Below, in pieces: positions 1-64,000 of a stretch of 64,000 nt of DNA (position 1 is its first letter; each line of letters opens with the position of its first letter). The DNA is from Crambe crambe (Eukaryota; Porifera; Demospongiae; Poecilosclerida; Crambeidae). The DNA lies in NCBI GenBank assembly GCA_963924555.1, contig OZ004595.1, positions 2,108,001-2,172,000 of the forward strand, read 5' to 3'. The notes beneath the pieces are model-generated. The model did not search any database, was not told the origin of the DNA, and worked only from the letters and a program-made list of their open reading frames with translations. A program made the position numbers and the translations under genes.

Positions 1-350
1 AATTCTGCTTTGGCCATCTGTTAGAGCGGCACCTAGAGGCTGATCTTTTGCTATTAGTTTTGACTAAAGCTCTACTTCACTATTCGAGCACTCGGAACAC
101 TAGCTAATCTTTCGACGCCATTTTGAAGCGTATGTCGTTAGGGGGCGGGGTTATGGGCGGAGCCACGTAAGCTTCTTAAGTTTAGCTAGCTAAGCTTAGC
201 TAGGTCTTCAGTTTAATCATTTAGCTAGCTATTTATTCTTATCTGATGATGTTCCAGTCACTCCTTGCTGAATTACAGTGCTCACCCTCAATTCGTTTAT
301 ACATACACAAACTAATATTCAACTTCAAGAACTAAGAAAAAAGGATAGAA
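1..350 (+). repeat. Dispersed repeat R, copy 1 (cut by window edge)
   Basis: The same sequence occurs at about 627-946 (diverged), 41505-41870 (+) and 24690-25045 (-). It starts with an (AAT)n-TCAGATCG stretch in the complete copies and runs into the foldback element at 351. Where complete, it includes a promoter-like stretch that ends in CACTTCACCATGCC. No reading frame is conserved among copies, so I see it as non-coding mobile DNA. Confidence 0.75.
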
Positions 351-610
351 ACAAGTGAGTGCAAAAAATTTCTTCTAAATAAAAAGGTTAAGTAGGGATA
401 GCCTAAAATCTAGCTGGGCTATATAATGTACTGCAGCCTCGTATGAATACAATCCCTACTTTTACAACTGCTATAGCTAGCTATAGGTAGTGGATGTAAA
501 TGTAGGGATTATATTCATACGAGGCTGCAGTACATTATATAGCCCAGCTAGATTTTAGGCTATCCCTACTTAACCTTTTTATTTAGAAGAAATTTTTTGC
601 ACTCACTTGT
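351..610. mobile_element. Foldback element, family 1
   Basis: A near-perfect palindrome of about 260 bp. Its ends are ACAAGTGAGTGC and the reverse complement GCACTCACTTGT. Each arm carries GTAGGGAT twice, once about 45 bp from the end and once near the loop. Related copies lie at 24178-24406 and, as a half element, from 42051. No coding capacity. Confidence 0.85.
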
Positions 611-626
611 AATAATAATAATAATA

Positions 627-946
627 ATCAGATCGGCGTACTGACTAACTGGCTATAGTCATCAGAATTCTGTTCGGGCCATCTGTTAGAGCGGCACCTA
701 GAGGCTGATCTTTTGCTATTAGTTTTCACTACAGTTCCATTTCACAATTCAGTGATTATGGAACACTAGCTAATCTTTCTTCGCCATTTTAAGGGCGGGG
801 CCACATAGGTGCGCGCTAGCTAGAGCTGTTCAGCTTTGATATCTATACTTCAGCTAGCTATTTCTTGTGTTTCAGTCATTCCTCAGTACAGATTCTCATC
901 CTACACATAATCAGTACTTAGCTCTGTGCAGTTTGCTCACTTCACC
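627..946 (+). repeat. Repeat R, diverged copy; 5' flank of the micro-exon gene
   Basis: It aligns with 41505-41870 from the TCAGATCG start to the CTCACTTCACCATGCC end, so the ATG of the downstream proline-rich gene sits at the repeat's 3' edge. It probably supplies that gene's promoter and 5' UTR (inference). The other copies continue into different sequence after the ATGCC. Confidence 0.6.
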
Positions 947-3643
947 ATGCCAGTGCCTCCAGAAGGTAAGGAACTATAGATAACGCATTTCCATTCATTA
1001 CTCTTACAATTACATCATCCAGTGCCACCTCCAGCCGCGCACCCCCTCCCAGAAGGTAAGCAACTATGGAAATTTCTCCACTCTCACAATTACATCATCC
1101 AGTGCCACCTCCAGCTTAGTCTGGCGTAGCGGCGACCCTTACTACCTCCAGCTGTGCGCCCCATCCCAGAAGGTAAGCAACTACATGTATGTAGAATTAT
1201 CACATTCACTGCTCTTACAATTACATCATCCAGTGCCACCTCCAGCCGCGCACCCCCTCCCAGAAGGTAAGCAACTATGGAAATTTCTCCACTCTCACAA
1301 TTACATCATCCAGTCCCACCTCCAGCTGTGCGCCCCATCCCAGAAGGTGAGCAACTACATGTATGTAGAATTATCACATTCACTGTTCTTACAATTACAT
1401 CATCCAGTGCCACCTCCACCCGCACGCCGCCCCCTCCCAGAAGGTAAGCAACTATCAGTCTACACTAAGACCACGGTATTGTAGTGATTGTGGAATGTAC
1501 TGTTAACAGCAATCAACAAGCATGAATATCATTACTAATAATTCACACGTTAGATTATTGTATCACATATGCGAGCAAGCCAAAGTACAGCAGAGATGTC
1601 TGAAGCCTCTGAGGGTTCCAGCTATCTTCATATTCTGAATCATCCTGCTCCTGAAGTTCTGTGGTATCATCCCACTTGATTAGGTCATTGCAATCGAACC
1701 ATTATTCATGTTTGCGGTCGCCAAAATATTGTCCAACACCCACGCAACTTGACCAAAGTTCACCTAATGTTTCATTATATAATTATTGGTTTTCTCATGT
1801 CTATATTTTCATCGGGTAATGGTCTACTGGTTGAAAAAGGTCATTTAGACTTAGGTCAGGCCTCCAATTAGCCTGTGGAGCCAGTTTCTTCGTGCAGCGA
1901 CCCTTGGCTCCTACTTGTGCAGTCTACTGAAATCGAGGTGGTCGATAGAGTCTCTTCAATAGAACAGGCTATATTTTACCTAGCGTTTGATTAGTAAAGG
2001 TGAAAACTGTGTGCTTAGTAGAGTTAATGTGAAAGTAACTATTGATAAGTCCTAGTTAGCTAGAGTAGTCTGTGTGGTCCACAATATCTAGTTCAAAGAC
2101 GACCGATTTAGCCATTTTTTGATGCCATCTATCCTGGACTCTCAAGGAACCAGTGGTTTGAATATCTGATATTGTGTTCAAGAACCTTCCTACTATCACC
2201 TGTCAAGAGATGGAGCCCTGGCTACAGTTGGCTCCTTGCTGTGCAGTCAACTGAAGTCATCGAGTACAGGAATTGTGACCTGTATATCCGAGATCTCTCC
2301 TGCCCTCAAGTTGGCACTAGACTAGATTGATTTATTGTAAAAGAAACTTTGTTTATTACTCTCTATGGTTGATAAATTATATGAACTCTAACGATCTATA
2401 ACTGTCAAAAATATCAAAATACAAATTGCCTCAGTTTTGCCTCCATTTTCCCGCCTTGTAGCCTGCTGCATTTCAACCGGAAGTGGTCAGCCCAATACCG
2501 TGGTCTTAGCGTAGACTGCTATGGAAATTTCTCCACTCTCACAATTACATCATCCAGTCCCACCTCCAGCTGTGCGCCCCATCCCAGAAGGTGAGCAACT
2601 ACATGTATGTAGAATTATCACCTTCACTCCTCTTACAATTACATCATCCAGTGCCACCTCCACCCGCACGCCGCCCCCTCCCAGAAGGTAAGCAACTATG
2701 AAAATTTCTCCACTCTCACAATTACATCATCCAGTCCCACCTCCAGCTGTGCGCCCCATCCCAGAAGGTGAGCAACTACATGTATGTAGAATTATCACAT
2801 TCACTGCTCTTACAATTACATCATCCAGTGCCACCTCCACCTGCACGCCACCCCCTCCCAGAAGGTAAGCAACTATGGAAATTTCTCCACTCTCACAATT
2901 ACATCTTACATCATCCAGTGCCACCTCCAGCTGTGCACCCCATCCCAGAAGGTAAGCAACTACATGTATGTATAATTATCACATTCACTGCTCTTACAAT
3001 TACATCATCCAGTACCACCTCCAGCTGTGCGCCCCATCCCAGAAGGTGAGCAACTACATGTATGTAGAATTATCACCTTCACTGCTCTTACAATTACATC
3101 ATCCAGTGCCACCTCCAGCCGCACGCCCCCTCCCAGAAGGTAAGCACTATAGATGGCACATTTCATGATCTTACAATTACATCATCCAGTGCCACCTCCA
3201 GCTGCGTGCCCCCTCCCAGAAGGTAAGGAAGATAACACATTTCATGATCTTACAATTACATCATCCAGTGCCATCTCCAGCTTCCCACCCTCACCCAGAA
3301 GGTGCATGGAGGGGTAGGGCCAGGGCCAGGCGGAGGGGGAGGGGACGTCAATGGTTCTGCCCGTTCCCGTGTGAGTACATACTTAACTATTTTCCACCAA
3401 CACATAACATGCATCACCATAATCTATAATTCCAGACCCAAACATGTACAATGGAAATCGTAAGTAATATAAAACAGTACAAAATCACTTAGCTATAGCT
3501 ACTTCTCTTTTCCAGTACACTTTCATTACCATGGGAGGTAAAAAGTAAGTTATGCACTCTAACACTATAAAACATTTCATTTGCATCTCAATACTTGCAG
3601 AAATCCTCAACAAGAACTCAAGGCAAGCATAAAGCTGCTATAG
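947..3643 (+). CDS. Proline-rich protein gene made of tandem phase-1 micro-exons
   Basis: Exons read by eye: 947-965, 1023-1055, 1152-1172 (broken copy, alternative acceptor), 1234-1266, 1314-1346, 1408-1443, 2558-2590, 2652-2687, 2735-2767, 2829-2864, 2919-2951, 3013-3045, 3107-3139, 3190-3222, 3269-3370, 3436-3459, and 3516 to the stop. Each micro-exon follows CATCCAG, ends CCAGAAG, and is followed by GTAAGC or GTGAGC. All are phase 1-1, so each adds one VPPPAxxPxPEG-type repeat. Two intron types alternate, 47-nt and 61-nt class. After MPVPPEG and the repeats come an Arg/Gly-rich stretch (3302-3350) and a Tyr/His/Asn-rich tail. Stop is TAA 3539-3541, or TAG 3641-3643 if the donor at 3538 is used. 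No signal peptide and no family recognised. RNA evidence would settle exon use. Confidence 0.7.
1115..1151 (+). mobile_element. 29-bp insertion with 8-bp target duplication in micro-exon 3
   Basis: Compared with the other repeats, this exon has 29 extra bases (1115-1143) followed by a second ACCTCCAG (1144-1151) duplicating 1107-1114. An 8-bp duplication fits a hAT-type footprint or a tiny remnant. The insertion brings an in-frame TAG. The duplicated CCTCCAG offers an in-frame replacement splice acceptor. Confidence 0.65.
1456..2518. mobile_element. 1,063-bp non-autonomous DNA transposon inside a micro-exon-gene intron
   Basis: Inverted ends of 26 bp with one mismatch: CAGTCTACACTAAGACCACG at the left, and the complement of the same with one G at the right. 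It is flanked by a 4-bp duplication CTAT (1452-1455 and 2519-2522). Removing it restores the standard intron GTAAGCAACTATGGAAATTT seen in sister introns. No transposase frame inside. Superfamily unassigned. Confidence 0.85.
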
Positions 3644-4562
3644 CTAGGCTTCATTTAACCCTATTGCTTTATACTTGCAGAACTCAAATCATTCATAATA
3701 ACTTAGATATAATCTCACGATCATCACGTACTCAAACAGCAGATCTATACTAAGCTGCACAAAATCCTGCCATGCTACCAGCATCATAACATGTACACAC
3801 AGGAGGTAGCACACGTGCCACAAATTACTACTCTTATTTGCTCATTCCCCACACCCTCCCTCATACAAGACAACCAAACGTCTATATAGTATTCAACTTA
3901 ATGTTTCATTCTGCTCTCATTTGCACTGCACATGCTCATCCATCCTCCCTCATGTAAGACAACCAAACCTCAACAACTATTATTAAATTGAATGATTGTG
4001 CTCCTCTACAATAATGCTTTTCACTCCTCAGTACTGTATCCACAACAGATAGCTACTCATCCTTCATGTCAGTCATACTCTCCTCCCTCAAGACAACAAA
4101 ACATTCTTCAGTCCTATGCTTGCAAACAATACCGATTGCAAATTAACCCTCAGCAGGCATGCACGAGAGGGTACTCTCAATACAAAAACTGCCCAATCAC
4201 TCCTTATTGCACATGCCCACACACATTAATTGAAAAAAGAAAACACCAATAATTATGAAATTTGGGTATTAGCTAAGTGCAGCCATTCATTTCTTCAGGT
4301 TCTTCTTCACCACTGCACCTTCTCATTCTCTGCCAAGTGAAGATATTGAAGCCTCTTCATCAGTCAATCATCCCTGACGAATATAACATTCAAAATTAAT
4401 CATTGAGCTTTTCTTAGCATATATTTGGAAATAACTACTTCTTATGAATATGAATAATAGCTACACAAGTATTGTTATATAATCTTCCATATCCAGTGCT
4501 ATGTACTTACCAAAGAGGAACATTTCAATTTATATAGCTAATTACAAAGAAAAAGAATGGAA
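3644..4562. other. Unassigned 0.9-kb stretch
   Basis: A/T-rich with several CATCCTCCCTCAYRYAAGAC-like stretches (about 3850, 3945 and 4060) that look like a degenerate tandem repeat. A free 86-codon frame at 3992-4252 has no recognisable features. No gene called. Confidence 0.4.
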
Positions 4563-5088
4563 ACAAGTGAATGCAAAAAATTCTTCTAAATAAAAAGTGA
4601 AGTAGGGATAGCAGTAAAATTTAGCTGCATTCCTATCACTCCTACCCCTCCAAAAAATTTCAATATCCACGCCCATATATACACCCAACTTAAATCCCTA
4701 CTCTTCACTCCCCCTTCAGCAATAAGTGAGTCAAGTAACCCCTTACCCATACCCATCACCAAACTCAAGAATCACAGCAATAATATTATTACAAAACTAC
4801 TATTCCTACTTCACTCCTAAGGAGGCCTAGGAGTGAAGTAGGAATAGCTAGTAGTTTTGTAATAATATTATTGCTGTGATTCTTGAGTTTGGTGATGGGT
4901 ACGGGTAAGGGGTTACTTGACTCACTTATTGCTGAAGGGGGAGTGAAGAGTAGGGATTTAAGTTGGGTGTATATATGGGCGTGGATATTGAAATTTTTAG
5001 GAGGGGTAGGAGTGATAGGAATGCAGCTAAATTTTACTGCTATCCCTACTTCACTTTTTATTTAGAAGAATTTTTTGCATTCACTTGT
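4563..5088. mobile_element. 526-bp near-perfect palindromic foldback element, family 2
   Basis: Ends are ACAAGTGAATGC and its complement; arms are about 260 bp with only a few mismatches; the centre is CTCCTAAGGAGGCCTAGGAG. GTAGGGAT occurs twice per arm. Because the arms mirror each other, the same 60-codon frame appears on both strands (4586-4768 - and 4883-5065 +). A second member lies at 42547-43061. Confidence 0.9.
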
Positions 5089-6502: not shown

Positions 6503-7698
6503 ATGTTGGACTGCAAGATCTTTGGGTTTATCACTGTGGTAATGGTTGCATCAAGTATGAATGTAGTTCATACTCATTCCATTAACTGTGCTGCTATCCA
6601 ATGTGCATCAGGTATGGAGTTTTTAAGTAGCTAATGTTATGATGGTCTGTATGAATAGAGACAGCAATAGACTAGTGGCTACAGCCAAGCCAAGATAACA
6701 AGATCACAAAGCAATATAGCTGACTAGCTATAGACAGCATAAATCCCCCCTGTGGCAACTGTACCACACGATAATGTTAGGAGGGCAGTCCCCCCCAACC
6801 TTTTCTATTGTCAGACTCTATGCTAACTATCGCTATCATGCGGCTATTAGTAAATAAAGGGTCAACTGCTTCTGTTGCTAGCTGTAGCTCAACCTCCCCC
6901 CTCTCCCCTCCCTCCCGGATCCCCCTCAATTCCACCAATCTGTAGTTTGCTAGCCCTGCCACAAAGTTAACGATTTATACTTTCCCTCATGATCATGTAG
7001 AGTGCCCTTCCAGTAAACCGGCAGTGAACTGCTCTCCTGCTCCATGTGAAGTGATCAAATGTCCAGCCCATCCCAATGCAAAATGTGTGAACAGCATCTG
7101 CGGAGACTGCAAGGCTAAATTCATGGAACCAGGTGGAAATGAAGTCACAGATACGTGCCAGTGTCCTCCTGGAGTTAAACTGATGCACTGCTCAGACGAC
7201 CCGTGTCTGTTCACAACATGCCCTGCCTATCCAGATGCAACCTGCATGGCTGACTACTGTGGAGGTTGCAATGCCATATTCTTCCAAGGAAGAAATGAAA
7301 TCACCAAAAACTGTCACAATCCTTGTCCCCCTCACAAACCACTGGCGAAATGTATTGTTGATCCGTGCAAGGTAATCAAATGCCACTCCCATCCTGACGC
7401 CATCTGCAAGGCTAATTACTGTGGAGGTTGCAATGCCATATTCTTCGAAAAGGGTGTTGAGGTCACCGGCAGATGTGGTATGCTATATTATACGTACATA
7501 GTTTTAACAACTAGTATGAATAATGAGAGCAGAGATTACAATGATAGCCGCAAGAACAAAAATGTACCACAATGAATATTATATGACTACTCTGCATACT
7601 GTAATCTGATTGGTCAATAGGTGTTCAAAATAGTACATGACTGTATTTGTGTATGCAACTATTGAGATCGACCAATCTTTATTTTCACTACAGGTTGA
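6503..7698 (+). CDS. Secreted cysteine-rich protein with three YCGGC-type repeats
   Basis: Exons 6503-6611, 7001-7477 and 7694-7698, all joined in phase 1. Exon 1 encodes MLDCKIFGFITVVMVASSMN, a good signal peptide. The main exon holds three modules of about 45-50 residues with the pattern PC-x4-C-x2-HPxAxC-x4-CGGCxAxF-x6-EVTxxC (NYCGGCNAIFF and DYCGGCNAIFF in modules 3 and 2; ICGDCKAKF in module 1). The last exon adds only the end of a Gly codon and TGA (7696-7698). If the second intron is retained, the frame runs to 7575. About 196 residues, likely extracellular and disulfide-bonded. I do not recognise a named family. A near-identical copy starts at 63019. Confidence 0.8.
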
Positions 7699-19341: not shown

Positions 19342-19562
19342 AAGTTACAAGGTATGAAAACAAAGCACGCATAAATACATGTTATATGCAAAATATACTA
19401 CCTACTCACTACATGTTTTAAGTTACAAGGTATGAAAACAAAGCACGCATAATATGCAAAATATACTACCTACTCACTACATTTAAGTTACAAGGTATGA
19501 AAACAAAGCACGCATAAATACATATTATATGCAAAATAAACTACCTACTCACTACATGTTTT
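19342..19562. repeat. Three-unit tandem repeat, copy 1
   Basis: Three units of 65-78 bp starting AAGTTACAAGGTATGAAAAC at 19342, 19420 and 19485. The middle unit is shorter. Same array at 47153-47373. Confidence 0.9.
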
Positions 19563-19927
19563 ACCAATATTGTCACTAGTTACTCACAAAATGTGGCTTT
19601 TCATTTTTTTTTCTTCATTGAGCTGCAAAAGTAAAAGAACATGTATGATATATAGTGGCATGAATAGCTACTACTAAGAGGTCATGAATATCAATCATAA
19701 ATAGTAAGTTGTCTCTCTCTCTCACACACTCTCCATTATATGGGGCAACCCACCTGCTGAAAGTCAAAGGTAGCTATAGTGTTGAAAAAAGTTCTGGAGC
19801 ATGTTAAAACTTAACATGTAGCTACTGAGAAAAGGCACAACAACAAAAGGGAAGCCCTTTAGCTATACAACTGTAGGCATCCGGCAAGTTTTTATGACTA
19901 TAACAGCAAAACATCATGATGCCATAC

Positions 19928-21073
19928 CTGAGTTAGTCTTAAGGCTCTCCACAACTGCTTTCAATAATTCGCCATTTTTATCTCCACCTAGTTCCCATAC
20001 CATTGCACCAGCATTATCAAGACTTTTAATATACTCGCACTTAGCACGAATCGATTCAATGTTATCAAAAGTTATCAACACTTTTTTGGACTCTTGGTAG
20101 ATGTAGACTGCTGCTGCATTAGGATCATATTGGGCCGTTGAAACGTCCTGAATATCCTTGTAATCAATGCGCATTGAGTTTGATGACTGCTTATCGAAAG
20201 GGTGATGAAATCCATTACTCTCTACATAAACATCACCGAACTGCTGACCATAAAAGGCAAGACCTAGGTAAAGCTTTTCCTTAGAAACACCAAATTCCAG
20301 TAGAGCCTCAGTAGATGTTTTAATATCAGGTAAGGGGGTGTTGAAGCCTGTATGCCTACTCCATTTTGCACCACTGTACTCATATGAAAGGAGACTGTAA
20401 TAATCCACTAGACCATTTAAAGATGTGTAATCAAGAGAGCCCACCCTTTCTGGTATTCGAAAAATCGTCACACCTATCACTTTGTCGATTGCTTTGCGCA
20501 TAGCTCGCACAAGGTCAACATAGTGTGCTGCATCTGTTTTTTTTTTATATTCCCAGTTGATATCCACACCATCAAATTTATATTTCTCCATCAAATCTTT
20601 TAATGATGAAGCGAAACTCTTTCGTCCCTCTGGAGTTGCAGATGCAAGTTTGAAATTGTCAGAATGTTCATATCCACCAACAGAGATAAGAATCTCGACA
20701 CCTTCACTTTGTAACTTTTTAAGCTCTTCTAAATTGTCTTCTAGTCTTCTTTTATTTTGTTCATCAAGACTAACTGTGCCATCTTCATTTGGATATGCAA
20801 ATCCGAAAATAACATAATCAACATCGTTAGTATACAAAGCTTGCAAGTTGCCAGTATTGAAATAAGCAATAATCTTTTTCTCACAACCTAAAAATTAATA
20901 AAGAATATCAACATCTTTACATAAGGACAAACATTTTTAGGTACCTGTTTCCGCTTCATCAAGATTACGTTTAAGAAGCTGAACATTTTTCTCTAACTCA
21001 GCCAGTGTGTTTTGCACATGCTGGTCAAGTGCAACAACGCTGCAAGCAGAAGCAACAGCGCAGCAAACTTCAT
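19928..21073 (-). CDS. GH18 chitinase-like protein, copy 1, altered catalytic motif
   Basis: Main exon 19928-20887 encodes a GH18 barrel: KKIIAYFNTGN strand 1, ILISVGGYEHSD (the SxGG motif), then FDGVDINWEY where GH18 enzymes have DxxDxDxE. The third Asp is Asn here, while the acid/base Glu is kept. Later: YYSLLSYEYSGA, LYLGLAFYGQQFGD and GAMVWELGGD. The upstream exon (20945-21073) adds a short coiled-coil (LAELEKNVQLLKRNLDEAE) joined in phase 1. The ATG at 21073 opens MKFAALLLLLAALLHLTS, a signal-like peptide, but in another frame from the coiled coil. The main exon ends at a GTATGG donor; reading through gives GMAS and a stop. The Asp-to-Asn change suggests reduced hydrolysis or a lectin-like role (inference). 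Confidence 0.75.
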
Positions 21074-21432
21074 TTTTTAGGTTAATGTGTAGCTGGAAAA
21101 TAAGTGGATTCTACAGTTGGTTCCAGCCAGGCGGCTACATATGCCATGTAGGAAGTTGTAATGTGAACCTGTAATACTTACTACGAAGCACTTAGATAAC
21201 TACCAGACCCACAAACAACTAAGATATAAGCCAATGCACTTTGTAGGCTTGCCTATCATCTTCAGAAATGTCTAGTTTCATGGGCCAGACTCGATTCTTT
21301 CCTTTTTCTTGGAAAGAAAGAGTCATGCATTGGACGTTTCGTTTGTGCCGACTCAGCATCATAGGGGTAGCGTGGGCATTGCGTTTTGACTATGACGTAC
21401 CATGACGAAACATTAAACAGCCAATAAAACTA

Positions 21433-21579
21433 CAGTGGATTTACGGTCCGTAAGAATATTCCGTATGCCGTACTTGGGAAGCGTATGCTTTGTGCGTGAA
21501 TACATTTTTATTGAAAAAAAAAGGCATAAGCTTCTCGTATACAGCATACAGAATATTTGAACGGAGCGTAAATCCACTG
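21433..21579. mobile_element. 147-bp MITE, Tc1/mariner-like, copy 1
   Basis: Ends CAGTGGATTTACG and CGTAAATCCACTG, flanked by TA on both sides. The partner at 49236-49372 has lost about 10 bp from its left arm. Confidence 0.7.
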
Positions 21580-21682
21580 TACTGTGACGTATGCTCCGGT
21601 TTGTGCAAAAGCCAGTCATCAGGCTTTTGCACAGGAAAAAAAAAATTTATTATACAGAAAAATATATATTATACAGAAAAAA

Positions 21683-23165
21683 AAAGTCATCAGGCGCGTC
21701 ATCCGTAAACCGACTACTACGCATGCGTACTGTTTGTTAACTTTTAAAATTGCGCCGAATTTGGAGGGAAATAAGCCTTGCTGGTGATTGTTTCAGTCTT
21801 TGGTGTACAATTAACCTTTTCCAGTGAGCATTTTGCAAGATTCCCGCAAACCGGAGTAGTGACGTTTAAAAATTCCCACTGCCTTCTCCTGCCCCACTGG
21901 CTCCATCAGACATAATGAGATTCGGGACTTCACTGCACATCTCCTTTCAGAAGTTGGTAATAGAACCACATCTCCAGCCATTATAAGGTGAAGCCCTCCA
22001 CAATCAATCATCAAATTGTCAGAGTTGAGTATGCTTAGACATTGCCGATGGCTTCTGGGGAAGTAGGCACGAGAGAGCTTTCTTTGATGTAAGGGCTCCC
22101 TCAAACCGAAACTCCAAATTGCTACAGATCTCATGAAAATGCAAAGAAAAGATCTTATGATCAACGAATCAGAGAAGTTGAACATGGCTCTTTCAGTCCC
22201 CTCATTTTATCTTGCACTAGTGGCATGGGACGTGCTGCCGTAAACACATACAAGAGATTGGCCGCTCTTATCTCAACAAAAAGAGATGATACATACAGCA
22301 ATACCATGGGGTGGATCCAATGTCGTCTCTCATTCTCTCTGCTACGTGCAGCTATCATGTGCAAATGTAAATTGTTACTATATTTAACCATAATTTACTG
22401 CAGTATCCGGACATATGCGGACGAGCCTACCACGTGCTAAGCTATATTTTACATACCCCTTTGGCTTCCAAAACCGTGTAGTTCTGCACATGCAGTTATC
22501 CGGGAGAAAAACGGGAAATATCCAGCTCATGAATATTCATTGTCGGCATGTCGGCACTATCAGTAAAAAAAAATCTCAGAAAACAATAGAACGATCTGAT
22601 AAGCCCTTTGATTCAAGTGCTTTCGCTTTGAAGAAGCTTTGATGTTAGCTTTGAGGACTTTTTTTTTTTTTTTTTTTTTTGAAAGTACTAGCTAGACATG
22701 CATGCCTATGCTTGCCTATGTAGCCAATAGTGGCCTGGTGGCTTTAGCTGGAGAAGAAGCGGCTGAAACGGGTGACTTGTACAGCTCGAGCTGCTGGTTA
22801 GGTTGCCATGGGGATGATGGATGACGTAGAATTCGCTGGCGATTTTCCCGTGTCGATTCGTTCATGAAGACAAAGAGAGACAGCTGCCGAAGTCAAAGGG
22901 TTAGTCCGGTTTGCGGGAATCTTGCAAAAATGCTGAGTGTGCATTCTCGCGCATGCTCGTCGTTGAGCCTCGAAAAATCTCACTGGAGAAGATTAATTGT
23001 ACACCAAAGGTTAGAAGTATACTAGAACAGTCACCAGCTAGCTCTTCATGGCTTATTTGAAGTTACTTCTCTCCAAATTCGAGCGCAATTTCAAAACGCA
23101 ATTTCAAAAGTTCAAACAGTACGCATGCGTAGTAGTCGATTTTACGGATGACGCCTGACGACTGG
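21683..23165. mobile_element. Inverted-repeat element enclosing a retroelement remnant, copy 1
   Basis: Arms of about 170-180 bp face each other: GTCATCCGTAAACCGACTAC to TGTACAATTAACC on the left, and TGTACACCAAAGG to TAGTCGATTTTACGGATGAC on the right. GCAAGATTCCCGCAAACCGG also recurs inverted. A poly-T run (22662-22680) is internal. Partner near 49485-50960. Confidence 0.6.
21870..22365 (+). pseudogene. Mobile-element polyprotein C-terminus, decayed, copy 1
   Basis: Plus-strand frames, with shifts between them, read HNEIRDFTAHLLSEVGN, VIEPHLQPL, ADGFWGSRHERAFFDV, then REVEHGSFSPLILSCTSG and GWIQCRLSFSLLRAAIMC. This order (EPHLQPL, RGFWG, AFFDVR, EVEHGSFTPL, CRLSFSLLRSAI) is familiar from the C-termini of retroelement-type proteins in cnidarians and molluscs; I cannot name the clade. 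At least two frameshifts and stops make it dead. Confidence 0.55.
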
Positions 23166-47152: not shown

Positions 47153-47373
47153 AAGTTACAAGGTATGAAAACAAAGCACGCATAAATACATGTTATATGC
47201 AAAATATACTACCTACTCACTACATGTTTTAAGTTACAAGGTATGAAAACAAAGCACGCATAATATGCAAAATATACTACCTACTCACTACATTTAAGTT
47301 ACAAGGTATGAAAACAAAGCACGCATAAATACATATTATATGCAAAATAAACTACCTACTCACTACATGTTTT
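47153..47373. repeat. Three-unit tandem repeat, copy 2
   Basis: Same three units as 19342-19562, including the shortened middle unit. Confidence 0.9.
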
Positions 47374-47736
47374 ACCAATATTGTCACTAGTTACTCACAA
47401 AATGTGGCTTTTCATTTTTTTTTCTTCATTAAGCTGCAAAAGTAAAAGAACATGTATGATATATAGTAGCATGAATAGCTACTACTAAGAGGTCATGAAT
47501 ATCAATCATAAATAGTAAGTTGTCTCTCTCTCTCACACTCTCCATTATATGGGGCAACCCACCTGCTGAAAGTCAAAGGTAGCTATAGTGTTGAAAAAAG
47601 TTCTGGAGCATGTTAAAACTTAACATGTAGCTACTGAGAAAAGGCACAACAACAAAAGGGAAGCCCTTTAGCTATACAACTGTAGGCATCCGGCAAGTTT
47701 TTATGACTATAACAGCAAAACATCATGATGCCATAC

Positions 47737-48876
47737 CTGAGTTAGTCTTAAGGCTCTTCACAACTGCTTTCAATAATTCGCCATTTTTATCTCCACCTAG
47801 TTCCCATATCATTGCACCAGCATTATCAAGACTTTTAATATACTCGCACTTAGCACGAATCGATTCAATGTTATCAAAAGTTGTCAACACTTTTATGGAC
47901 TCTTGGTAGATGTAGACTGCTGCTGCATCAGGATCATATTGGGCCGTTGAAACGTCCTGAATATCCTTGTAATCAATGCGCATTGAGTTTGATGACTGCT
48001 TATCGAAAGGGTGATTAAATCCATTACTCTCTACATTAACATCACCGAACTGCTGACCATAAAAGGCAAGACCTAGGTAAAGCTTTTTCTCAGAAACACC
48101 AAATCCCAGTAGAGCCTCAGTAGATTTTTTAATACCAGGTAAGGGGGTGTTGAAGCCTGTAAGCCCACTCCATACTGCACCACTGTACTCATATGAAAGG
48201 AGACTGTAATAATCCACTAGATCATTTAAAGATGTGTAATCAAGAGAGCCCACCCTTTTTGGTTTTCGAAAAATTGTCACACCTATCACTTTGTCGATTG
48301 CTTTGCGCGTAGCTCGCACAAGGTCAACATAGTGTGCTGCATCTGTTTTATTTTTATATTCCCAGTCGATATCCACACCATCAAATTTATATTCCTCCAA
48401 CAAATCTTTTAATGATGAAGCAAAACTCCTTCGTCCCTCTGGAGTTGCAGCTGCAGGTTTGAAATTGTCAGAATGTTCATATCCACCAACAGAGATAAGA
48501 ATCTTGACACCTTTACTTTGTAACTTTTTAAGCTCTTCTAAATTGTCTTCTAGTCTTCTTTTATTTTGTTCATCAAGACTAACTGTGCCATCTTCATTTG
48601 GATATGCAAATGCGAAAATAACATAATCAACATCGTTAGTATACAAAGCTTGCAAGTTGCCAGTATTGAAATAAGCAATAATCTTTTTCTTACAACCTAA
48701 AATAAAGAATATCAACATCTTTACATAAGGACAAACATTTTAGGTACCTGTTTCCGCTTCATCAAGATTACGTTTAAGAAGCTGAACATTTTTCTCTAAC
48801 TCAGCCAGTGTGTTTTGCACATGCTGGTCAAGTGCAACAACGCTGCAAGCAGAAGCAACAGCGCAGCAAACTTCAT
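47737..48876 (-). CDS. GH18 chitinase-like protein, copy 2, complete catalytic motif
   Basis: Exons 48748-48876 and 47737-48696. The structure matches copy 1, and the catalytic motif is intact: FDGVDIDWEY (DxxDxDxE). SxGG motif in ILISVGGYEHSD; YYSLLSYEYSGAVWSG and LYLGLAFYGQQFGD near the expected barrel strands; GAMIWELGGD at strand 8. The barrel is about 319 residues with no carbohydrate-binding module. The first exon carries a short coiled coil joined in phase 1. As in copy 1, the ATG opens a signal-like peptide in a different frame, so the true start is uncertain; TTGCTTCTGCTTGCAG inside it could be a splice acceptor. This is the copy more likely to be an active chitinase-type hydrolase. 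Confidence 0.78.
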
Positions 48877-49235
48877 TTTTTAGGTTAATGTGTAGCTGGA
48901 AAATAAGTGGATTCTACAGTTGGTTCCAGCCAGGCGGCTACATATGCCATGTAGGAAGTTGTAATGTGAACCTGTAATACTTACTACGAAGCACTTAGAT
49001 AACTACCAGACCCACAAACAACTAAGATATAAGCCAATGCACTTTGTAGGCTTGCCTATCATCTTCAGAAATGTCTAGTTTCACAGGCCAGACTCGATTC
49101 TTTCCTTTTTCTTGGAAAGAAAGAGTCATGCAGCGGACGTTTTGTTTGTGCCGACTCAGCATCATAGGGGTAGCGTGGGCATTGCGTTTTGACTATGACG
49201 TACCATGACGAAACATTAAACAGCCAATAAAACTA

Positions 49236-49372
49236 CAGTGGATTAAGAATATTCCGTATGCCGTACATGGGAAGCGTATGCTTTGTGCGTGAATACATTT
49301 TTATTGAAAAAAAAAGGCATAAGCTTCTCGTATACAGCATACAGAATATTCGAATGGAGCGTAAATCCACTG
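49236..49372. mobile_element. MITE, Tc1/mariner-like, copy 2
   Basis: Partner of 21433-21579 with a deletion in the left arm; TA on both sides. Confidence 0.65.
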
Positions 49373-49484
49373 TACTGTGACGTATGCTCCGGTTTGTGCA
49401 AAAGCCAATCATCAGGCTTTTGCACAGGAAAAAAATAATTTATTATACAGAAAAATATATATTATACAGAGAAAAAAAAAGTCA

Positions 49485-50960
49485 TCAGGCACGTCATCCG
49501 TAAACCGACTACTACACATGCGTACTGTTTGTTAACTTTTAAAATTGCGCCGAATTTGGAGGGAAATAAGCCTTGCTGGTGATTGTTTCAGTCTTTGGTG
49601 TACAATTAACCTTTTCCAGTGAGCATTTTGCAAGATTCTCGCAAACCGGAGTAGTGACGTTTAAAAATTCCCACTGCCTTCTCCTGCCCCACTGGCTCCA
49701 TCAGACATAATGAGATTCGGGACTTCACTGCACATCTCCTTTCAGAAGTTGGTAATAGAGCCACATCTCCAGCCATTATAAGGTGAAGCCCTCCACAATC
49801 AATCATCAAATTGTCAGAGTTGAGTACGCTTAGACATTGCTGCCGATGGCTTCTGGGGAAGTAGGCACGAGAGAGCTTTCTTTGATGTAAGGGCTCCCTC
49901 AAACCGAAACTCCAAATTGCTACAGATCTCATGAAAATGCAAAAAAAAGATCTTATGATCAACGAATCAGAGAAGTTGAACATGGCTCTTTCAGTCCCCT
50001 CATTTTGTCTTGCACTAGTGGCATGGGACGTGCTGCTGTAAACACATACAAGAGACTGGCCGCTCTTATCTCAACAAAAAGAGATGATACATACAGCAAT
50101 ACCATGGGGTGGATCCAATGTCGTCTCTCATTCTCTCTGCTACGTGCAGCTATCATGTGCAAATGTAAATTGTTACTATATTTAACCATAATTTACTGCA
50201 GTATCCGGACATATGCGGACGAGCCTACCACGTGCTAAGCTATATTTTACATACCCCTTTGGCTTCCAAAACCGTGTAGTTCTGCACATGCAGTTATCCG
50301 GGAGAAAAACGGGAAATATCCAGCTCATGAATATTCATTGTCGGCATGTCGGCACTATCAGTAAAAAAAAATTTCAGAAAACAATAGAACGATCTGATAA
50401 GCCCTTTGATTCAAGTGCTTTCGCTTTGAAGAAGCTTTGATGTTAGCTTTGAGGACTTTTTTTTTTTTTTTTTTGAAAGTACTAGCTAGACATGCATGCC
50501 TATGCTTGCCTATGTAGCCAATAGTGGCCTGGTGGCTTTAGCTGGAGAAGAAGCGGCTGAGGGTGACTTGTACAGCTCGAGCTGCTGGTTAGGTTGCCAT
50601 GGGGATGATGGATGACGTAGAATTCGCTGGCGATTTTCCCGTGTCGATTCGTTCATGAAGACAAAGAGAGACAGCTGCCGAAGTCAAAGGGTTAGTCCGG
50701 TTTGCGGGAATCTTGCAAAAATGCTGAGTGTGCATTCTCGCGCATGCTCGTCGTTGAGCCTCGAAAAATCTCACTGGAGAAGATTAATTGTACACCAAAG
50801 GTTAGAAGTATACTAGAACAGTCACCAGCTAGCTCTTCATGGCTTATTTGAAGTTACTTCTCTCCAAATTCGAGCGCAATTTCAAAACGCAATTTCAAAA
50901 GTTCAAACAGTACGCATGCGTAGTAGTCGATTTTACAGATGACGCCTGACGACTGGATTT
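49485..50960. mobile_element. Inverted-repeat element with retroelement remnant, copy 2
   Basis: Same arms and interior as 21683-23165. The remnant of the mobile-element protein lies at about 49665-50163 (+), with the GSFSPLILSCTSG and CRLSFSLLRAAIMC segments. The poly-T tract is shorter. Confidence 0.6.
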
Positions 50961-62879: not shown

Positions 62880-64000
62880 ACCATGTTGCTCAGTGTGCTC
62901 CCCCCTCTCCCCCCTCTCCCCCATCTCCCCCTCCCTCTCAATTCCACCAATCTGTAGTTTGCTAGCCCTGCCACAAAGTTAACGATTTATACTTTCTCTC
63001 ATGATCATGATCATGCAGAGTGCCCTTCCAGTAAACCGGCAGTGAACTGCTCTCCTGCTCCATATGAAGTGATCATCCATCCCAATGCAAAATGTGTGAA
63101 CAGCATCTGCGGAGACTGCAAGGCTAAATTCATGGAACCAGGTGGAAATGAAGTCACAGATACGTGCCAGTGTCCTCCTGGAGTTAAACTGATGCACTGC
63201 TCAGAAGACCCGTGTCTGTTCACAACATGCCCTGCCTATCCAGATGCAACCTGCATGGCTGACTACTGTGGAGGTTGCAATGCCATATTCTTCCAAGGAA
63301 GAAATGAAATCACCAAAAACTGTCACAATCCTTGTCCCCCTCACAAACCACTGGCGAAATGTATTGTTGATCCGTGCAAGGTAATCAAATGCCACTCCCG
63401 TCCTGACGCCATCTGCAAGGCTAATTACTGTGGAGGTTGCAATGCCATATTCTTCGAAAAGGGTGTTGAGGTCACCGGCAGATGTGGTATGCTATTATAT
63501 GTACATAGTTTTAACAACTAGTATGAATAATAATACGTATCAGGTGGGATGTTCTAGGCTGAGAGCAGAGATTACAATGATAGCCTCAAGAACAAAAATG
63601 TACCACAATGAATATTATATGACTACTCTGCATACTGTAATCTGATTGGTCAATAGGTGTTCAAAATAGTACATGACTGTATTTGTGTATGAAACTATTG
63701 AGATCGACCAATCTTTATTTTCACTACAGGTTGATCACAAGCACGAAGAATTATTGCAAACATACAAGCTAGCACTATCACTGACTATGTTATACAATTT
63801 GCAATTCACAACAGCAATAGCATTTAGCCAAGGGCACACGTACACACAGTCAATAGCAATACAACTAACGCAAGAATGACATCAAAGGCTGTGTATACAG
63901 CCAGTAATCAGTTAGTCACCACGATACCATCACTCTGTCAGCTAGCTATATAATAATTATTAAATTGAAGAACTGGATAGTGGCTATGTCACGTTTTATG
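62880..64000. repeat. Duplicate of 6890-7965
   Basis: Similarity begins in the CCCCTCTCCCC tract and continues to the window end. Both exon and intron sequence are nearly identical, so the duplication is recent, about 56 kb apart in the same orientation. Confidence 0.85.
63019..63734 (+). CDS. Secreted cysteine-rich three-repeat protein, copy 2 (5' exon not found)
   Basis: Main exon 63019-63486 and last exon 63730-63734 correspond to 7001-7477 and 7694-7698. Modules 2 and 3 are almost unchanged (DYCGGCNAIFF, NYCGGCNAIFF). In module 1, the segment PCEVIKCPAHPNAKC of copy 1 is PYEVIIHPNAKC: one Cys is replaced by Tyr and another lost with a 9-bp in-frame deletion. No signal-peptide exon is found within 700 bp upstream, and similarity to copy 1 fades before about 62880, so this may be a partial duplicate or have a more distant first exon. 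Confidence 0.65.

What the first reader, a model, noticed from the sequence alone, without database searches (positions are those of the whole stretch)
947..3370. Tandem array of 33/36-nt symmetric micro-exons encoding a proline-rich repeat
At least 13 consecutive micro-exons have the same acceptor context, the same donor context and phase 1-1. Any subset can be skipped or included with the frame kept, so one gene could make a large ladder of repeat numbers. The array grew as a two-exon unit of about 175 bp, with alternating 47-nt and 61-nt class introns. I know of no standard family with this design.
Basis: partly seen in the sequence, partly recalled or inferred. Interest (0 to 1): 0.88.

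Follow-up and report, generated by a model that had tools for sequence, protein, structure and literature searches.

The report
Jumping gene built from micro-exons
In a genome thought to be a sponge's, a row of tiny 33- or 36-letter exons coding for a proline-rich protein is real, but it is cargo of a mobile DNA element (a Helitron relative) that has copied it to many places, rather than one unusual gene.

Summary
The array is real: 13 of 14 candidate exons in 1023-3301 are 33 or 36 nt, phase 1-1, with GT-AG borders; one (1103-1172, 70 nt) carries an in-frame TAG. A 1,063-bp transposon splits one intron.

The array is cargo of a dispersed, non-autonomous Helitron-like element (here 618-5087, 5' end missing). 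The acceptor/exon motif occurs 433 times in the genome (control 0). Copies begin A|TCAGAGAGTGCG and end CTTG|T after a foldback; these termini are shared with a Rep-helicase Helitron.

Evolution supports coding and splicing: three subfamilies differ mostly synonymously in the C-terminal exons (A-B pS 0.74, pN 0.12), and a leucine codon split by an intron reads CTA, TTG or TTA. A splicing ladder is untested: no RNA was available.

An unexplained oddity: synonymous sites there diverged far more than adjacent introns (0.05) or 3'UTR (0.11), though not among copies of one subfamily.

"No standard family" is too strong: schistosome micro-exon genes share the design. I found no report of such an array as Helitron cargo.

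The parts
1..240 (+). Remnant leader of an adjacent Helitron-like element, similar to 666-930
   Evidence: w1-128 matches L052 553-680 at 85%
351..610 (+). Foldback 3' end of that adjacent element, abutting the micro-exon unit
618..946 (+). 5' leader of the micro-exon unit, shared with other copies; the first 230-odd bases of the element (TCAGAGAGTGCG...) are missing here
947..965 (+). First exon, ATG CCA GTG CCT CCA GAA G (inferred start codon)
1023..1055 (+). Micro-exon, 33 nt
1103..1172 (+). Irregular exon, 70 nt with in-frame TAG; an internal CCTCCAG could act as acceptor and leave a 21-nt phase 1-1 exon 1152-1172 (inference)
1234..1266 (+). Micro-exon, 33 nt
1314..1346 (+). Micro-exon, 33 nt
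1408..1443 (+). Micro-exon, 36 nt
1456..2518 (.). Unrelated inverted-repeat transposon in the sixth intron, flanked by CTAT
2558..2590 (+). Micro-exon, 33 nt
2652..2687 (+). Micro-exon, 36 nt
2735..2767 (+). Micro-exon, 33 nt
2829..2864 (+). Micro-exon, 36 nt
2919..2951 (+). Micro-exon, 33 nt
3013..3045 (+). Micro-exon, 33 nt
3107..3139 (+). Micro-exon, 33 nt
3190..3222 (+). Micro-exon, 33 nt
3269..3370 (+). Last repeat fused to an arginine/glycine-rich stretch, 102 nt: VPSPASHPHPEGAWRGRARARRRGRGRQWFCPFP
3436..3459 (+). C-terminal micro-exon, 24 nt (PNMYNGN)
3516..3544 (+). Last coding exon (LHFHYHGR, TAA at 3539-3541)
4563..5087 (+). Foldback 3' end of the unit, ending CTTG|T

Best explanation
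The array is the N-terminal coding part of a small spliced gene carried by a non-autonomous Helitron-like element. SHOWN: many dispersed copies; copy ends of the form A|TCAGAGAGTGCG...CTTG|T shared with a Rep-encoding Helitron; repeat exons mostly of lengths divisible by three; C-terminal exons whose differences between subfamilies keep the protein. INFERRED: (1) an autonomous Rep-helicase Helitron supplies the enzyme, and rolling-circle transposition spread the gene; (2) recombination or slippage between the near-identical 174-177 bp units changes the number of exons from copy to copy; (3) the transcript is spliced into MPVPPE-[VPPPAxxPxPE]n-RG-rich-FCPFPYPNMYxGNLHFHYHxx, where skipping a symmetric exon changes n and not the frame. 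Most likely role, a guess: a disordered, basic, nucleic-acid-binding accessory protein that helps the element.
For: 433 motif sites, control 0; the 100 listed places fall at 30 loci on three contigs. Downstream unit (window 3302-4600) found at 91-97% over its full length at 8 other places; leader at 40 scored candidates of 1254. 5' flank A|TC in 8 of 9 ends; CTTG|T in 5 of 7 fuzzy 3' ends, T next in 6 of 7; L052 and L043 have both ends in one copy. 5' terminal motif 2296 sites, control 0. Helitron_like_N: 67 matches, 65 over cut-off; two lie about 4.0-4.1 kb downstream of such a 5' end on the same strand. One, L055, has the same 5' end in two 231-bp copies; the 3' foldback is shared too. Coding: A-B 17.7 synonymous of 28 differences, 7.3 expected, 0 of 5000 shuffles as high; B-C 0.0016. 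Split Leu codon C|TA, T|TG, T|TA. Exon lengths divisible by three in 174 of 190 exons at 31 loci other than the window. Array variation by codon position 0.045/0.059/0.108 and 0.009/0.011/0.041. L052 reads through as 78 residues.
Against: No RNA. The 3' end is CTTG, not the canonical CTRR, and there is a foldback of about 520 bp instead of a short hairpin. Many copies are broken: the window copy has a TAG in the 70-nt exon; L051 has two 19-nt exons (read; the script missed them); L063 lacks 4 bases in the 24-nt exon; 52-nt (8) and 37-nt (4) exons recur. Of 9 copies with a recognised ATG, only 3 matched the tail pattern too. No start codon was found for subfamily B. Within subfamilies copies drift without clear constraint: A 4 synonymous, 4 not; B 2 and 3. 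No Pfam family over its cut-off, no solved structure, no protein relative but one 133-aa unspliced-looking reading. Autonomous partnership rests on shared ends only. No empty site was shown.
Confidence: 0.78

Rival explanations
1. Non-coding repeat: a minisatellite inside a non-autonomous element, with splice-like motifs that are a by-product of the repeat unit.
For: Introns are as conserved as exons within the array (variant fractions 0.019-0.028); many copies have broken frames; within subfamilies no clear codon bias.
Against: Synonymous bias between subfamilies; the Leu codon split by an intron kept through changes on both sides; stop codon at the same place in A, B and C; third-position bias in array exons.
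Confidence: 0.1
2. Coding, but constitutive: all intact micro-exons are always included, and length varies between genomic copies rather than by alternative splicing (no ladder from one gene).
For: Splice sites are near-identical at every exon and introns are 46-61 nt, which by general knowledge suits intron definition and full inclusion; exon number clearly varies between copies.
Against: The window copy would then give only 22 residues. No direct evidence either way.
Confidence: 0.5
3. Host multigene family of MEG type, spread by ordinary duplication, with Helitrons merely nearby.
For: Micro-exon genes of schistosomes form multigene families (passages of PMC10526429).
Against: Copies share exact outer ends with a Helitron, with unrelated flanks; no copy outside such an element was recognised among those read, though subfamily C (L060) lacks a recognisable 5' end.
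Confidence: 0.08

Closest known systems
Schistosoma micro-exon genes (MEG)
   Same: Many very short exons, mostly divisible by three, in tandem, so that skipping keeps the frame (passages of PMC10526429; tandemly repeated 81-base exons are cited there from Davis et al. 1988).
   Different: MEGs have introns of 100 to about 5000 bp and a signal peptide (same passages); here introns are 46-61 nt, the predicted protein starts MPVPPE with no evident signal peptide, and the gene lies in a mobile element.
Helitrons carrying captured genes (maize, Pleurotus)
   Same: Non-autonomous Helitrons carry genes with introns, with alternative splicing reported in maize (listing and abstract start of PMC4528327 and PMC4289320).
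   Different: No micro-exon array is mentioned in what I saw of these papers.
Helitron2 / Helentron-type elements
   Same: Palindromes at both ends and an inverted motif (AAGTAGGGATRGC) at unequal distances from the two ends, like the asymmetric or subterminal repeats described (passages of PMC4067079).
   Different: Flanks are A|T rather than TT; an endonuclease domain was not looked for.

Membership tests
Helitron (canonical) | 5' TC | tested here: met
   8 of 9 5' ends
Helitron (canonical) | Insertion between A and T without target duplication | tested here: inconclusive
   A before the 5' end in 9 of 9, followed by TC in 8; T after the 3' end in 6 of 7; no empty site examined
Helitron (canonical) | 3' CTRR preceded by a 16-20 nt palindrome about 11 bp from the end | tested here: not met
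   Ends CTTG; long foldback reaching the end
Helitron (canonical) | Rep/helicase in an autonomous partner with the same ends | tested here: met
   PF14214 hits; L055 5' end; 3' foldback in L056/L057; the middle of the partner was not read
Helitron2 / Helentron | Asymmetric terminal inverted repeats and palindromes at both ends | tested here: met
   By eye
Helentron | Endonuclease domain; insertion in TT | not tested
   Endonuclease not searched; flanks seen are A|T, which speaks against the TT target
Schistosome MEG | Tandem short exons mostly divisible by three | tested here: met
   13 of 14 in the window; 174 of 190 at 31 other loci
Schistosome MEG | N-terminal signal peptide | tested here: inconclusive
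   Predicted N-terminus MPVPPEVPPPA shows none by eye; start codon inferred, no predictor run
Schistosome MEG | Sequence homology or shared descent | not tested
   No MEG sequence was compared

The most novel reading that the evidence does not exclude
The element's protein is kept while its exon letters are deliberately changed: selection favours synonymous recoding of the spliced message, for example to escape small RNAs that target mature mRNA, which would leave introns free to stay the same. The micro-exon array would be part of the same contest, giving many mRNA variants of one protein. A second reading is repair of exons from a spliced template, which would alter exons and spare introns.
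Probability: 0.1. Interest if true: 0.88.

Novelty: new variant of a known kind. Interest (0 to 1): 0.6.

Why it matters
It would join two known things not reported together in what I searched: a micro-exon array that can change length without breaking the frame, and a transposon that copies it through the genome. That makes a natural library of dozens of near-identical splice arrays with different exon numbers, useful to test how very short introns and exons are paired. The excess of synonymous change over intron change in the C-terminal exons, if it holds in more lineages, would be a rare and testable sign of selection on mRNA letters apart from the protein.

Tried and rejected
Antisense coding: rejected, since GT-AG borders, the split Leu codon and the stop all fit the + strand. 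Reading through the introns as a 58-residue repeat: the first half of the array is open in one frame (166 aa), but all three frames of the second half hold stops. The array as part of the autonomous Helitron's own protein: L055 has an unrelated 15-residue repeat there and no micro-exons in the 5.3 kb read. Relatives in phage and plasmid collections: none. Protein search with 78 residues: one weak hit, a 133-aa reading that looks like an unspliced copy; with 191 residues: none. A general exon hypermutation: not supported, since copies within a subfamily do not show it (A 8 variants in 123 exon sites against 9 in 260 non-coding; B 5 in 114 against 45 in 269, the last probably inflated by misaligned indels). 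An earlier run with broken rows left in gave no codon bias within A (10, 10, 10) and was replaced, which kept 7 of 12 A rows and, for B, 9 of 12 (L041 and L043 broken off, L060 set apart as C). Whether the autonomous Helitron's genes show the synonymous excess: could not be tested; its non-coding leader matched over full length at only two other places, both 99%.

Full report
OBSERVATION. After an ATG exon (947-965) come 14 candidate exons between 1023 and 3301: ten of 33 nt, three of 36 nt and one of 70 nt with an in-frame TAG. The sixth intron is 1114 nt because a 1,063-bp inverted-repeat transposon (1456-2518, CTAT repeated on both sides) landed in a 47-nt intron. After 3370 come a 24-nt exon, a last coding exon and a TAA at 3539-3541.

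IT IS A REPEATED ELEMENT. The 24-base acceptor-plus-exon pattern, up to two mismatches, has 433 sites in the 143-Mb, 119-contig assembly; the pattern written backwards has none. The 100 places listed fall at 30 separate loci on three contigs (grouped by me, tallied), so the full number of loci is larger. The downstream sequence (window 3302-4600) is found over its whole length at 91-97% at eight other places and at 73-76% at four; 40 of 1157 candidates were scored. The leader (605-1000) has matches at all 40 candidates scored of 1254.

ENDS. Copies read from the genome share outer ends. The 5' end follows an A and starts TC in 8 of 9 cases: A|TCAGAGAGTGCG(C/G/T)TAGCACTCTCTAAGTAGGG. The 3' end is a foldback finishing CTTG|T in 5 of 7 fuzzy matches, with a T next in 6 of 7; the window copy ends the same way at 5087. 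L052 and L043 have both ends in one copy. Flanks outside these ends are unrelated. The window copy lacks the outermost 5' part and abuts the 3' foldback of a neighbouring relative (351-610).

LINK TO HELITRONS. The 5' terminal motif has 2296 sites (control 0), some in runs about 230 bp apart. The assembly has 67 matches to the Helitron Rep domain PF14214, 65 over the cut-off, some in open frames above 2,300 residues. Two of them, on contig C1, lie about 4.0 and 4.1 kb downstream of this 5' motif on the same strand. I read the start of one (L055): two 231-bp copies of the same 5' end, about 100 bp of shared leader (82%), then a long open frame. Its 3' region and that of the second copy carry the same type of foldback. 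I did not read the middle of these elements. So an autonomous Helitron shares both ends with the micro-exon element. The canonical CTRR ending is not met; palindromes at both ends and an inverted motif at unequal distances look more like Helitron2 or Helentron-type elements (passages of PMC4067079), though the A|T flank does not fit the TT target of Helentrons.

CODING AND SPLICING. Among copies there are three subfamilies by their C-terminal exons: A (window, L052 and others), B (L032, L033, L036, L039, L058, L059 and others) and C (L060 only). Over 37 codons A and B differ at 28 of 111 bases; 17.7 differences are synonymous where 7.3 are expected, with 0 of 5000 shuffles as high. A-C gives 18.0 of 31 (0 of 5000) and B-C 9.0 of 15 (P 0.0016). 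Length changes there are in threes between subfamilies. One leucine codon is split by an intron: C|TA in A, T|TG in B, T|TA in C; letters on both sides of the intron have changed and leucine is kept. That is good evidence, without RNA, that this intron is removed at the predicted border. In the array, third codon positions vary more than the others (0.045/0.059/0.108 in 52 exons of one type; 0.009/0.011/0.041 in 42 of the other; 3 of 97 exons of 33 nt were left out as too different). In 31 loci other than the window 174 of 190 exons have lengths divisible by three.

RESULTS AGAINST. Many copies are broken. The window copy reads only 22 residues if every exon is used, 191 if the 70-nt exon is left out. 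L052 reads 78 residues with all exons. L051 has two 19-nt exons that would break the frame. Of nine copies with a recognised ATG, three matched the tail pattern. Within subfamilies I saw no clear constraint, as expected of element copies that are not selected one by one. I found no start codon for subfamily B.

THE ODDITY. Between A and B synonymous sites differ at 0.74, while the introns between the same exons differ at 0.05 (9 of 176) and the 3'UTR at 0.11 (99 of 866 aligned, with many gap columns). B-C: 0.37, 0.011, 0.026. Synonymous against UTR: P 3e-12, 6e-12 and 2e-8 for A-B, A-C, B-C; non-synonymous against UTR: not different in A-B and A-C (P 1.0, 0.39), slightly higher in B-C (0.035). 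In the last coding exon the leucine, both first histidines, phenylalanine and tyrosine codons all differ synonymously between A and B. The sample is small (about 24 synonymous sites), there are only three lineages, and copies within a subfamily do not show the excess. The array exons do not show it either: the same 33-mers occur in A and B, perhaps through homogenisation. Plain possibilities are that introns and UTR are constrained or homogenised while the coding lineages are old. A bolder one is selection for changed mRNA letters.

FUNCTION. Not known. The predicted protein is a proline-rich repeat with a basic RG-rich stretch and an aromatic/histidine tail (FCPFPYPNMYxGNLHFHYH). No Pfam family reached its cut-off, no solved structure matched. 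My best guess is a disordered accessory protein that binds nucleic acid; that is inference from composition.

COMPARISON. The exon design resembles schistosome micro-exon genes, which also have short exons mostly divisible by three, but with long introns and signal peptides (passages of PMC10526429). Helitrons with captured, spliced genes are known (PMC4528327, PMC4289320: listing and abstract starts only). I found no report of a micro-exon array in a Helitron in searches, which cover open-licence papers only.

VERDICT. Observation confirmed; interpretation partly right; a new variant of a known kind (gene-bearing Helitron) with an unusual exon design, and one unexplained pattern worth following.

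Noticed in passing
3299-3541 against L036, L060: Synonymous sites of the C-terminal exons diverge far more than adjacent introns and 3'UTR between subfamilies A, B and C.
   Followed up: partly
1456-2518: A 1,063-bp inverted-repeat transposon inside an array intron with a 4-bp CTAT repeat at both sides.
   Followed up: partly
about 19384-23109 and 47195-50900: A segment seems to be present twice about 27.8 kb apart (same tandem repeats), each with a GH18 chitinase-like reading frame (19914-20894 and 47723-48739): a segmental duplication or an assembly artefact.
   Followed up: no
6946-7575 and 62958-63521: Two very similar cysteine-rich reading frames with repeats (FASPATKLTIYTF...); no Pfam match at E 0.01.
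   Followed up: no
L055:1691-2211: The Helitron Rep protein has an N-terminal array of about eleven 15-residue repeats.
   Followed up: no
G000:C3:2040111-2040260: A fragment 78% like the Helitron coding region lies about 3.8 kb upstream of the subfamily C array on the same strand; whether one old element once carried both genes is open.
   Followed up: no
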